Below, piece by piece: positions 14,119 to 17,591 of a DNA stretch of 64,000 nt. The first letter of the stretch is position 1. Each line of letters begins with the position of its first letter. A program made the translations under genes and the position numbers. The notes beneath the pieces were generated by a model. It saw nothing but the letters and a program-made list of their open reading frames with translations, searched no databases and was not told the DNA's origin. Source of the DNA: Candidatus Obscuribacterales bacterium (GTDB lineage Bacteria; Cyanobacteriota; Vampirovibrionia; Obscuribacterales; Obscuribacteraceae); assembly GCA_019744775.1 (NCBI GenBank), contig JAIETZ010000002.1:558001-622000 (forward strand), read 5' to 3'.

Positions 14119-14937
14119 TTAAGACGCGATCGCTTTGCGTAACAGTAAGTCTAAACGCTCTGACGCTTCTTTGGCGGCGCGCAAGACTTCTTCGTGTCCT
14201 TCCAATACAACATCGTCGGTCCAGACATTCGTAATGACAGATACGGCTGCTGCTTCTGTTTTAGTACCTTTGACAGTCTGCAATTCTGGCACAGTCGACA
14301 TACCAACAGCATCACAATTCAATTTACGCAGCATTTTGATTTCTGCAATTGTCTCATAAGTTGGTCCGAGCAATCCGGCATATGTGCCTTTACGCATCTG
14401 GCGAAATTTGCCGTTTTGCGACGCAAGCTCATCGCCGATTTGTTGCAACTTCGAGGAAATGGTCGACTTGTGTTCCTGTGAAGGCTGCGAAACAGCAGGC
14501 ATCAGACCTGTTTCTGATAGTTTCGGATTGAGGTGATCGCGATAGGAAGTTATATGCATCAAGTCACCAACACGAAATTCCGTATTGATTCCACCAGCTG
14601 CATTGGTCAAGATAAGAGTCGGTACTCCCCATTCAATCATTGCGCGTGCCGGCAATGTGACTGTTTCCCAATCATGTCCTTCGTATAAGTGAAAGCGACC
14701 ACGCATGACGGCAACAACTTTGCCATCTACTTTGCCGATAGTTACAGAGCCACTGTGTCCAGCGACAGATGGCGATACGCCAAAGACTTCCTGAAAAGGA
14801 TATGACTTTTCATCGTCCAAATTCTCGAGGACATTGACACCGGAACCAAGCACAATTGCAACTGAAGGTGTCACCAGAGATGCGTTACGCAGGTGAGCTA
14901 CTACTTCTGTCGAAGACTTTGGTTTATGCGCGGACAT
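14119..14937 (-). CDS. punA: purine nucleoside phosphorylase
   Basis: Phosphorolysis of purine (2'-deoxy)ribonucleosides to base and (deoxy)ribose-1-phosphate. This is the trimeric PNP type: GSG at 31-33, RFHLYEGH at 81-88, NAAGG at 112-116, GPTYET at 191-196 and GMSTVPE at 212-218 are all intact, with Asn 237 in the ITN motif for base recognition. The length of 272 aa is standard. AAGGAG precedes ATG 14937. It is the last gene of a deoB - PNP-like - punA unit, so the ribose-1-phosphate it makes can be passed to phosphopentomutase. Confidence 0.95.
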   Translation of the reverse strand: MSAHKPKSSTEVVAHLRNASLVTPSVAIVLGSGVNVLENLDDEKSYPFQEVFGVSPSVAGHSGSVTIGKVDGKVVAVMRGRFHLYEGHDWETVTLPARAMIEWGVPTLILTNAAGGINTEFRVGDLMHITSYRDHLNPKLSETGLMPAVSQPSQEHKSTISSKLQQIGDELASQNGKFRQMRKGTYAGLLGPTYETIAEIKMLRKLNCDAVGMSTVPELQTVKGTKTEAAAVSVITNVWTDDVVLEGHEEVLRAAKEASERLDLLLRKAIAS

Positions 14938-14949
14938 AAATTCTCCTTT

Positions 14950-15420
14950 TTAACCTAATTTTGCCGCAATTGGTGCAGCGTCAACGCCATCCGGCACCAC
15001 AAGGCCAACGACGCGCTTGTGGCTATGTGCGGCAATAATCATTGCCGGCACCAGGTTGTAGCAACAAACTTCACATCCAAAAGTGCGCAATAGTTCAAGG
15101 TCTTTGGCAGACGGTGCATAACCTGGCTTTAGTCCGGCGGCAATTCCCACAGAAATACCATTCGCTTTGTCGGTCATGTAAATATCTTGAACAGCAGGAA
15201 AACGCTCACCGCAAGGATCATTAGGCCCAACAAGCGGATTGCCACCCGTGAGGTTGATGTGATCGCTGACTATAAACGGCTCACTCTTTTGGAAACCCGT
15301 GCCTTTGTCGACTATGACAAAGACTTTCTCATCACTATTGCGAATGAGTTTCACAACCTCATCGCTAAATTTGTCGAATTGCTTAGAACCAGGAACGGTT
15401 CCGCTGAAGTCAATAATCAC
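14950..15420 (-). CDS. degenerate purine nucleoside phosphorylase paralog (156 aa)
   Basis: Residues 52-68 (SDHINLTGGNPLVGPND) match the PNP segment that follows the phosphate-binding half, and the later part aligns by eye with the PNP C-terminal half. The catalytic signatures are altered: the GPxYET position reads KPGYAPS (98-104) and GMSTVPE reads CYNLVPA (120-126). The N-terminal ~100 residues of PNP, with the GSG, RxHxYEGH and NAAGG motifs, are replaced by about 45 unrelated ones. It cannot be a normal PNP. The frame is fully open, with AGGAGG close to a GTG start, between deoB (8 bp gap) and punA (12 bp gap), so it is probably expressed, perhaps as a partner or regulator of PunA. Confidence 0.78.
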   Translation of the reverse strand: MIIDFSGTVPGSKQFDKFSDEVVKLIRNSDEKVFVIVDKGTGFQKSEPFIVSDHINLTGGNPLVGPNDPCGERFPAVQDIYMTDKANGISVGIAAGLKPGYAPSAKDLELLRTFGCEVCCYNLVPAMIIAAHSHKRVVGLVVPDGVDAAPIAAKLG

Positions 15421-15428
15421 GTACCCTC

Positions 15429-16688
15429 CTAATTGTTTTTTGCAGTTGCTAATTCCGGAACAAATGATTTACCTAGGCCTGTCCACTTGAGTCCGTACCA
15501 AGCGGCAAGACTGGCGGCCACGTCAAAGAAACCATCACGGATGCCGATTTCTTTCTTGTCTTTGCTCAAATTCTCGAGACTTGGCGAATAAGCAACTAGT
15601 GGCACAAACTCACGTGTGTGATCGGTGCCTACAGCTGTTGGATCATTTCCATGGTCAGATGTAATCAACAAAAGATCATTTGGCTGCATGGCAGAAATAA
15701 TTTTGCCGAGCCATTCGTCAATTTCTACCAACGCTTCAGCATAGCCTTTGACGTTTCTTCTGTGTCCATAAAGCATGTCAGTATCAACGAGATTGGTGAA
15801 GATGAGCGAAACATCTGCAGGTGGATTATTCGAGATTGCCAACGGCTTCAGATCAACAGAACCCGTCACAGCATCCAGAGTTAATTCCAGTCCTTCTTTG
15901 TTGGTGCCTGTATGTTTAGCATGCGTCAGACCCTGCTTAACGAAAATGTCTTCAATTTTGCCTATACCAAACACGCCGTGACCAGCCGCGTGCAATTGAT
16001 CCAGCAAAGTTTTTCCAGGCGGTGGCACTGAATAGTCTCTGCGATCTCCGCCTAGACGTTCATACTTGCCGGGCTCGCCCGCAAATGGTCTGGCAATTAC
16101 GCGACCAACTCTATGTTCGTTCTGCAACATTTCTCTGGCAATTTCGCACCAACGATAAAGAGTAGCCAATGGAACTGTTTCAATGTGCGTAGCAATTTGG
16201 AAAACACTGTCGCCGCTGGTGTAAACAATTGGAAATCCCGTGCGTTGATGTTCTTCGCCCAGGTCAACTAATACATCCGTACCGGAAGCCGGCTTGTTGC
16301 ACAAAATTCCCTTGCAACCAGTTTCAGCAATAAATCTGTCTATGACGTCCTTGGGAAATCCTTCAGGATAAACAGGAAACGCAGTCTTACTAACAAGACC
16401 CATCAACTCCCAGTGTCCTGTTTGCGTGTCTTTGCCGTTGGAGACTTCCTGCAGTTTGCCGCATAGTGCAGCTGGGTTGGCGACCTTTTCCACACCCTGA
16501 ATATCAGAGATGCAGCCTAAGCCCAAACGCGCCAAGTTAGGCAACTTAAGTCCGCCGACTGCTTTAGCGGTGTTGGCCAACGAATGCACTGTCGGCGCAT
16601 CGCCGAATTCACGCACGTCCGGGGCGGCACCAATTCCACAGCCATCGATGATGACAATGATTGCTCGACGAGTGTCAGAGATGGACAT
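15429..16688 (-). CDS. deoB: phosphopentomutase
   Basis: Converts (deoxy)ribose-1-phosphate to the 5-phosphate in nucleoside salvage. An alkaline-phosphatase superfamily metalloenzyme: IIDGCGIGAAPD at the N-terminus, GKDTQTGHWE (phospho-acceptor Thr), DTDMLYGHRR and LLITSDHGNDPT provide the metal ligands. The length of 419 aa is near the usual ~390-410. AGGAG precedes ATG 16688. First gene of the nucleoside catabolism unit with a degenerate PNP paralog and punA. Confidence 0.96.
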   Translation of the reverse strand: MSISDTRRAIIVIIDGCGIGAAPDVREFGDAPTVHSLANTAKAVGGLKLPNLARLGLGCISDIQGVEKVANPAALCGKLQEVSNGKDTQTGHWELMGLVSKTAFPVYPEGFPKDVIDRFIAETGCKGILCNKPASGTDVLVDLGEEHQRTGFPIVYTSGDSVFQIATHIETVPLATLYRWCEIAREMLQNEHRVGRVIARPFAGEPGKYERLGGDRRDYSVPPPGKTLLDQLHAAGHGVFGIGKIEDIFVKQGLTHAKHTGTNKEGLELTLDAVTGSVDLKPLAISNNPPADVSLIFTNLVDTDMLYGHRRNVKGYAEALVEIDEWLGKIISAMQPNDLLLITSDHGNDPTAVGTDHTREFVPLVAYSPSLENLSKDKKEIGIRDGFFDVAASLAAWYGLKWTGLGKSFVPELATAKNN

Positions 16689-17123
16689 ACCAAGCTCCTG
16701 ATTTCGATGTGTATTTACTAAGCATTAGGATATCGAGTTAGTGACACTTACAGCTAGTTCAAATTGTTTATTCTGTTTCACTATTGTGGGCATCATCCCA
16801 CTCACAACGCCTACGGTTTCCAAGGATGCCAAATTGCCGGAGAAAACCGGCTTGCCAACTGGTTCGCGAACTAGGCCAACAGACATTTCCAATTATTGTT
16901 GAAGTAGCGTTCGTCATTCTGCCAGTATGGGGATGACTTTTGATCTATCAATACGTCAGGAAATTTCTCCAGAACACAGCATTCAACGCAAACTTCGACT
17001 ATCTGTTTAACCGTTAAGCGGTAAGGTTGTTTGACGACTGCTCATCTGGTTGGAATTTTTGTCCGAGGACTTGAAGGAAACGTTACTTCGAGTCAATTTT
17101 CTGCACACGCAGAGGAGAAACGA
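16689..17123. other. intergenic region between divergent deoB and the Gly/Tyr-rich gene
   Basis: About 435 bp without a supported gene. It must hold the deoB promoter (minus) and that of the secreted Gly/Tyr-rich protein (plus). A small GCCGG-AGAAAA-CCGGC hairpin near 16835 and a TTCGCGAA palindrome near 16863 are visible; no convincing -35/-10 pair was identified. An open frame from 17031 joins the gene at 17124 but has no ribosome site. Confidence 0.5.
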
Positions 17124-17591
17124 ATGAAAAAATTCCTCCTCATCGCAGCCATGATAATTGGGCTGTTGACCATAAACCTATCATCGCCGGCTGAAGCTCG
17201 CTGCAACGGTCGCGGTGGTAACGGATTCCATTTCGGACTTGGTGGCTACGGTACTCCCGGCTTCAATTTCGGATGGGGACGTGGTGGCGGAACCTACGTG
17301 AATATCAATCCAGGCTATGGATATTATTCCGGCGGTTACGGCTATGGTGGCGGCTACGGTTACGGTGGTGCATACGGTGGCGCTTATGGTGGTGCTTACG
17401 GTGGTGTTTATGGCGGTGGTTATTATCCGTACGGATACAACAACTGCTACCCATACAACAACTACTATCAGTATCGTCAGTGCTATCCGTATCAGTACTA
17501 CCAGTATCCGCAGTACAACTATGGCTATCCGAACTACGGCTATGGATACCCGAATTATGGTTACGGCTACCCGCAGCAGCGCTGCAGGTAG
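17124..17591 (+). CDS. secreted Gly/Tyr-rich low-complexity protein (155 aa)
   Basis: A signal peptide (KKFLLIAAMIIGLLTINL) ends at a likely signal peptidase site in SPAEA-R. The mature protein is almost entirely Gly, Tyr, Asn and Pro: tandem YGGA units near residues 75-95, then NNCYPYNN, QCYPYQYYQ and two YPNYGYG units, with five scattered Cys. Such composition is typical of surface-layer, sheath-like or self-assembling proteins. GAGGAG precedes ATG 17124. The gene is monocistronic, with a repeat element 135 bp downstream. Confidence 0.82.
   Translation: MKKFLLIAAMIIGLLTINLSSPAEARCNGRGGNGFHFGLGGYGTPGFNFGWGRGGGTYVNINPGYGYYSGGYGYGGGYGYGGAYGGAYGGAYGGVYGGGYYPYGYNNCYPYNNYYQYRQCYPYQYYQYPQYNYGYPNYGYGYPNYGYGYPQQRCR

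What the first reader, a model, noticed from the sequence alone, without database searches (positions are those of the whole stretch)
14950..15420. Truncated PNP paralog without catalytic motifs, kept between deoB and punA
A 156 aa open frame shares the SDHINLTGGNPLVGPND segment and C-terminal layout with purine nucleoside phosphorylase, but the phosphate-binding half is absent, the GPxYET loop reads KPGYAPS and the GMSTVPE loop reads CYNLVPA. It has its own strong ribosome site and tight spacing to both functional neighbours. Trimeric PNP could form mixed oligomers with such a subunit, so a regulatory or scaffolding role is a reasonable guess.
Basis: partly seen in the sequence, partly recalled or inferred. 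Interest (0 to 1): 0.68.

Follow-up and report, generated by a model that had tools for sequence, protein, structure and literature searches.

The report
Two-part purine nucleoside phosphorylase, split by duplication
A small, enzymatically dead relative of purine nucleoside phosphorylase keeps exactly the subunit-contact loop that the neighbouring catalytic enzyme has lost, and the two genes occur together across a bacterial class, so a normally one-gene enzyme appears to have become an obligatory two-gene complex.

Summary
The ORF is real: 156 aa, GTG start, ribosome site, packed between deoB and punA. It is a true PNP homologue (NCBIfam 4.9e-11; predicted fold matches PNP, Z 14.2) and no decaying duplicate: about 40 relatives in its class, dN/dS 0.02-0.08. 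Each subunit of an ordinary trimeric PNP donates one loop (human 134-168, with Phe159) to its neighbour. The small protein ("X") keeps that loop (Phe in 39/39) and has lost the catalytic and loop-accepting parts. PunA keeps those and has lost the loop (Phe in 0/42). X and loop-less PunA co-occur even where unlinked; relatives without X have a loop-bearing PNP or none (one exception). Other families of the phylum carry an apparent intermediate: a full-length loop-bearing paralogue with a damaged purine site plus a catalytic loop-less one; trees give two old lineages. Best explanation: a heteromeric PNP made by complementary loss of one interface, with X the non-catalytic loop donor. Physical interaction is inferred, not shown. 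In one family X is fused to ArgJ.

The parts
14950..15420 (-). Gene X: 156 aa non-catalytic PNP paralogue (interface-loop donor subunit)
   Evidence: ORF; NCBIfam PNP homology; AF2 model and PDB fold match; conserved family
15178..15264 (-). Donor loop of X, residues 53-81 (DHINLTGGNPLVGPNDPCGERFPAVQDIY); F74 = human PNP Phe159
   Evidence: Alignment and residue counts: F159 39/39, P146 39/39, N137 39/39, Y166 39/39 in X
15100..15129 (-). Altered acceptor/purine loop of X, residues 98-107 (KPGYAPSAKD in place of GPxYETxAEx)
   Evidence: E201 is P in 34/39 X
15046..15063 (-). X-specific motif CYNLVP, residues 120-125, in place of GMSTVP
   Evidence: M219 is Y in 34/39 X, S220 is N in 33/39 X
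15424..15430 (-). Shine-Dalgarno-like AGGAGGG of gene X, overlapping the deoB stop
   Evidence: read
14119..14937 (-). punA: catalytic PNP subunit without the donor loop (PunA')
   Evidence: PF01048 1e-32; catalytic residues intact; loop absent
14458..14547 (-). Place in PunA' (residues 131-160) where the donor loop should be; reads SYRDHLNPKLSETGLMPAVSQPSQEHKSTI
14674..14688 (-). Retained acceptor strand of PunA', residues 84-88 (LYEGH; human 87-91)
   Evidence: alignment; interface role of 87-91 from PMC9916683
14338..14367 (-). Retained acceptor/catalytic loop of PunA', residues 191-200 (GPTYETIAEI; human 197-206)
   Evidence: interface role of 196-205 from PMC9916683
15429..16688 (-). deoB, phosphopentomutase, first gene of the conserved deoB-X-punA order
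   Evidence: NF003766 2.6e-143; gene order in relatives

Best explanation
X and PunA' are the two subunits of one purine nucleoside phosphorylase. Shown by sequence comparison: an ancestral PNP gene gave two paralogous lines; one (Sb, PunA') kept every catalytic residue and the surface that accepts the neighbour's loop but lost the donor loop; the other (Sa, X) kept the donor loop, lost the purine-binding residues and, in X, most of the rest of the active site and the accepting surface. Inferred: X pushes its DHINLTGxNPLxGPN...RFP loop, with F74 in the place of Phe159, against PunA' as one subunit of an ordinary trimer does to the next, and so orders PunA's active site. PunA' alone should be unstable or poorly active. 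Because X cannot accept and PunA' cannot donate, the ring cannot continue, and the simplest assembly is a 1:1 pair. The complex would release ribose-1-phosphate for DeoB, encoded in the same operon.
For: Of 73 positions at least 90% identical in ordinary PNPs, 45 are kept only by PunA', 13 only by X, 2 by both (Fisher p 8e-6, descriptive; direction holds at all nine threshold pairs). In human 134-168, 9 are kept only by X and 0 only by PunA' (p 7e-8). F159: 12/12 ordinary, 39/39 X, 0/42 PunA'; R84, H86, Y88, M219, N243, H257: 42/42 PunA'. Literature: the trimer interface is mainly loop 141-168 of one subunit against 87-91 and 196-205 of the next; Phe159 is the only active-site residue from the neighbour; the monomeric mutant loses efficient catalysis (PMC9916683). 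Co-occurrence: X with loop-less PunA' in families f1, f2 (linked) and f4, f6, f7 (unlinked); sampled f3, f5, f8-f11 genomes have loop-bearing PNP and no X. Intermediate Sa/Sb pairs in other families of the phylum: Sa has E201 changed in 11/12, N243D in 11/12, H257 changed in 11/12, loop intact; Sb catalytic intact, F159 0/12. Tree: X 100/100, PunA'+Sb 96/90, X+Sa separated 92/79. Purifying selection. The loop is the low-confidence part of the lone X model (residues 59-79, pLDDT under 50), as expected if it is ordered by a partner.
Against: No physical interaction, activity or complex model was obtained. Human Phe159Ala keeps near-normal activity and trimer state (cited in PMC9916683), so the invariant Phe alone is not decisive. 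One genome, G047 (91% complete), has PunA' with no X found. Other calf hot spots in the loop (Ser142, Arg148) are not conserved in X. In f1, X and punA are adjacent, so joint absence there may be one event or an assembly gap. Conserved positions within a protein are not independent. X+Sa support is moderate and X has long branches; the root was not inferred.
Confidence: 0.78

Rival explanations
1. PunA' has become self-sufficient without the loop, and X is a regulator (inhibitor or ligand sensor) that uses the old interface and a remodelled pocket (GLKxGxxP, CYNLVP) to tune it.
For: X has its own strongly conserved motifs not found in PNPs; fusion to ArgJ in family f4 suggests it can be recruited as a module.
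Against: Does not by itself explain why loop-less PunA' is confined to lineages with a loop-bearing partner, nor the Sa/Sb pairs, where the loop is kept although the purine site decays.
Confidence: 0.12
2. X works in something unrelated to PunA' (for example metabolite binding) and co-occurrence reflects shared ancestry only.
For: In f4, f6 and f7 X lies away from punA, next to gpmI, rsfS, purQ or ftsH, or fused to argJ.
Against: Complementary retention of the two faces of one known interface, conserved operon in f1 and f2, and absence of X in the sampled relatives that have a loop-bearing PNP.
Confidence: 0.07
3. Decaying duplicate or annotation artefact.
For: Short, below all curated PNP cut-offs.
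Against: Conserved across five families, open in nearly all copies, dN/dS 0.02-0.08, similar to PunA.
Confidence: 0.01

Closest known systems
Homotrimeric purine nucleoside phosphorylase (PunA/PNP, NP-I family, e.g. calf/human PNP, 3la8)
   Same: Fold, operon with deoB, catalytic residues (in PunA'), donor loop with Phe159 equivalent (in X)
   Different: The two halves of the subunit interface sit on two different proteins; one is non-catalytic and about half the size
Fungal V-ATPase ring subunits Vma3/Vma11 (complementary loss of interfaces after duplication; described in PMC7414715)
   Same: Ring protein duplicated, each copy lost a different interface, so both became necessary
   Different: There the loss was recapitulated by point changes in a ring of 8; here a whole loop on one side and much of the catalytic domain on the other are gone, in a bacterial enzyme
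HisZ/HisGS ATP phosphoribosyltransferase (regulatory protein that activates the catalytic subunit; PMC9734150) and trypanosome prozymes (from memory)
   Same: Catalysis by one subunit depends on or is enhanced by a non-catalytic partner
   Different: HisZ is a tRNA-synthetase paralogue, not a paralogue of HisGS; X is a paralogue of its own catalytic partner and would supply a loop rather than a known allosteric signal

Membership tests
Trimeric PNP (NF006054 / TIGR01697 / PF01048) | X reaches the curated score | tested here: not met
   42.6 against 218 bits for NF006054, 38.6 against 197.1 for TIGR01697; PF01048 not hit
Trimeric PNP (NF006054 / TIGR01697 / PF01048) | PunA' reaches the curated score | tested here: inconclusive
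   PF01048 113.9 against 25.1 met; NF006054 203.7 against 218 and TIGR01697 186.1 against 197.1 just missed
Trimeric PNP (NF006054 / TIGR01697 / PF01048) | NP-I fold in X | tested here: met
   AF2 pLDDT 77.9, pTM 0.78; VIA Z 14.2, rmsd 2.4 over 148 residues to 3la8
Trimeric PNP (NF006054 / TIGR01697 / PF01048) | Catalytic residues (S33, H64, R84, H86, Y88, E201, M219, N243, H257) in X | tested here: not met
   consensus residue kept in at most 8% of 39 X at these positions; the N-terminal alignment around S33 is uncertain
Trimeric PNP (NF006054 / TIGR01697 / PF01048) | Same residues in PunA' | tested here: met
   42/42, except E201 41/42
Trimeric PNP (NF006054 / TIGR01697 / PF01048) | Donor loop NPLxG...RF in PunA' | tested here: not met
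   0/42 sequences, and 0/15 further ones
Paralogous heteromer by complementary interface loss (Vma3/Vma11 type) | Duplication of one homomeric ancestor | tested here: met
   trees: X one clade, PunA' one clade, both PNP homologues; that the ancestor was a homomer is inferred from ordinary PNPs
Paralogous heteromer by complementary interface loss (Vma3/Vma11 type) | Each copy has lost a different side of the interface | tested here: met
   donor loop only in X, acceptor strand and loop only in PunA', against the interface in PMC9916683
Paralogous heteromer by complementary interface loss (Vma3/Vma11 type) | The two copies bind each other and both are needed | not testable with these tools
   no complex prediction or experiment available

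The most novel reading that the evidence does not exclude
Beyond being a structural donor, X is a sensing subunit: its remodelled dead site (GLKxGxxP, CYNLVP, conserved across families) binds a metabolite that switches PunA', and in family f4 the same module, fused to ArgJ, couples purine salvage to arginine synthesis.
Probability: 0.15. Interest if true: 0.88.

Novelty: new variant of a known kind. Interest (0 to 1): 0.77.

Why it matters
Purine nucleoside phosphorylase is a textbook homo-oligomer. A form in which catalysis and the interface loop are carried by separate genes would be a rare natural case, in a small soluble enzyme, of a homomer turned into an obligate heteromer by complementary loss, with apparent intermediates still alive in related lineages (Sa/Sb). 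It makes the question of how molecular complexity becomes locked in directly testable with two short genes, and it matters for annotation: PunA' is labelled a normal PNP although it may be inactive alone.

Tried and rejected
Decaying duplicate: rejected. BLASTP of X against its neighbour PunA gave only E 0.012; this looked like weak kinship but follows from complementary loss, since profile-profile comparison gives 2.4e-11. Pfam OST_IS hit to X (E 0.071) and the PDB 'Pizza' repeat hits (repeats of one weak match, none passing on its own): chance. AF2 of PunA' with four sequences was poor (pLDDT 58.8) and is not used as evidence. Rows from genome-search loci were not handed to the structure predictor because its rule names other sources. 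X not found in G047 by two searches. A plasmid search found only PNP-like matches under 60% identity, annotated as PNP where annotated. Distribution outside the phylum remains largely unsearched: the one scan of the genome collection used exact peptide patterns of the window's own X and returned Obscuribacterales only. Literature searches found no heteromeric PNP in the open library, which lacks most subscription journals.

Full report
OBSERVATION. The ORF at 14950-15420 (-) is present as described: 156 aa, GTG start, AGGAGGG just upstream, between deoB and punA on the same strand. It is homologous to PNP (NF006054 4.9e-11, TIGR01700 2.5e-10), although below every curated cut-off and invisible to Pfam PF01048. 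The AlphaFold model (four sequences; pLDDT 77.9, pTM 0.78) matches PNPs in the PDB (Foldseek E 2.8e-8; VIA Z 14.2, rmsd 2.4 over 148 residues to 3la8). The alignment runs from PNP residue 25 to 266, so the protein appears to be a whole fold with internal deletions rather than a C-terminal fragment. The best conserved segment (residues 59-79) is the only part of the model with pLDDT under 50.

IT IS A CONSERVED FAMILY. A search of 60 related genomes found matches in 45, and of 240 genomes of the class in 216. These counts mix X with ordinary PNPs. Short X-like frames occur in families f1, f2, f6 and f7; in f4 the X domain is the N-terminal part of ArgJ (ArgJ models 3.5e-113 and 9.7e-103, starting near residues 150 and 140), seen in six f4 genomes. 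In f1 and f2 the order is deoB-X-punA in nearly all loci, and X and punA frames overlap or lie within 17 nt in 13 of 17. dN/dS between close relatives is 0.02-0.08 for X, similar to PunA. Family codes (f1 and so on) are those of the genome search; two loci from named records place f1 in Candidatus Obscuribacterales.

THE NEIGHBOUR IS INCOMPLETE TOO. Aligning PunA proteins showed that the window's PunA and all its f1/f2 relatives lack the DHINLxGxNPLxGxN...RF segment that X carries. The joint alignment of 12 ordinary PNPs, 39 X and 42 PunA' gives a near-perfect division. Of 73 positions at least 90% identical in ordinary PNPs, 45 are kept by PunA' only, 13 by X only, 2 by both, 13 by neither (p 8e-6; other thresholds 0.02 to 7e-6). 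Within human 134-168, nine are X only and none PunA' only. Phe159 is F in 12/12 ordinary, 39/39 X and 0/42 PunA'. Arg84, His86, Tyr88, Met219, Asn243 and His257 are 42/42 in PunA' and nearly absent in X; Glu201 is P in 34/39 X. Positions are not independent, so the p-values are descriptive.

WHAT THAT SEGMENT DOES. In calf PNP the trimer interface is mainly the loop 141-168 of one subunit against 87-91 and 196-205 of the next; Phe159 is the only active-site residue from the neighbour; Asn137 and Asn145 of one subunit cluster with Asn199 and Glu205 of the other; and a monomeric mutant cannot catalyse efficiently (PMC9916683). X keeps the donor side (N137, N145, F159) and has lost or altered the acceptor side; PunA' keeps the acceptor side (LYEGH, GPTYETIAE) and lacks the donor. 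The same paper notes that human Phe159Ala is nearly normal, so the argument rests on the whole loop.

CO-OCCURRENCE. PunA' was found and is loop-less in the X-bearing genomes of f1 and f2 that were checked and in f4, f6 and f7, where it is not next to X. The one X-bearing genome without it is G030, whose X runs into a contig end. The f1/f2 genomes in which no X was found had no PunA either, only weak partial matches to other phosphorylases. Sampled genomes of f3, f5, f8, f9, f10 and f11 have a loop-bearing PNP and no X; one f5 row (G149) could not be read by the script but its PNP matches the X profile over the loop. The exception on the other side is G047 (f6): PunA' without a detectable X.

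AN INTERMEDIATE. In other families of the phylum (f12, f14, f21, f22, f28) genomes carry two full-length PNPs. One, Sb, has intact catalytic residues and no F159 or NPL motif (0/12). The other, Sa, has the loop and the phosphate-site residues, but Glu201 is F, C or Y, Asn243 is D and His257 is E or G in 11 of 12 rows (the twelfth, G389, is an ordinary single PNP). Most such genomes have both; two incomplete ones (G258, G272) showed one copy only. The trees place PunA' with Sb (96/90) and set X with Sa apart from the rest (92/79); X and PunA' are each one clade. With the loop columns left out, PunA' and Sb again lie apart from ordinary PNPs and Sa (99 for the latter). The simplest history is one old duplication, a loop-donor line (Sa, then X) and a catalytic line (Sb, then PunA'). 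The root was not inferred and X branches are long.

MECHANISM. Shown: homology, complementary loss, co-occurrence, selection, operon. Inferred: X and PunA' bind through the old trimer interface, X ordering PunA's active site; a 1:1 pair because neither can continue the ring; PunA' weak or inactive alone. The product ribose-1-phosphate would go to DeoB. Not explained: the X-specific motifs GLKxGxxP and CYNLVP, and the ArgJ fusion.

NOVELTY. No heteromeric PNP was found in the open literature searched. The principle is known from fungal V-ATPase (PMC7414715). I class this as a new variant of a known kind, of high interest because it is simple to test.

Noticed in passing
L048:7737-9347 and L049:7715-9328 (also L141-L145, L147): In family f4 the X domain is fused to the N-terminus of ArgJ; in G040 (L146) X and an ArgJ piece appear as separate frames.
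   Followed up: partly
L037-L040: In family f7 the X gene lies between rsfS and gpmI, unlinked to punA.
   Followed up: partly
L056:6784-10080: Genome G021 has two loop-less PunA copies flanking one X.
   Followed up: no
L187-L196, L184, L198-L222: Genomes of families f12, f14, f21, f22, f28 carry a loop-bearing PNP with a damaged purine site (E201F, N243D) and a separate loop-less catalytic PNP.
   Followed up: yes
window 15046-15063 and 15100-15129: X-specific motifs CYNLVP and GLKxGxxP are conserved across families and have no explanation in the donor-loop model.
   Followed up: no
L115 (G047): PunA' present but no X detected: a gap in the assembly, a very divergent X, or a PunA' that does without it.
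   Followed up: partly
window 17031-17591: ORF for a small Gly/Tyr-rich protein with an apparent signal peptide, conserved in G001 (96%).
   Followed up: no
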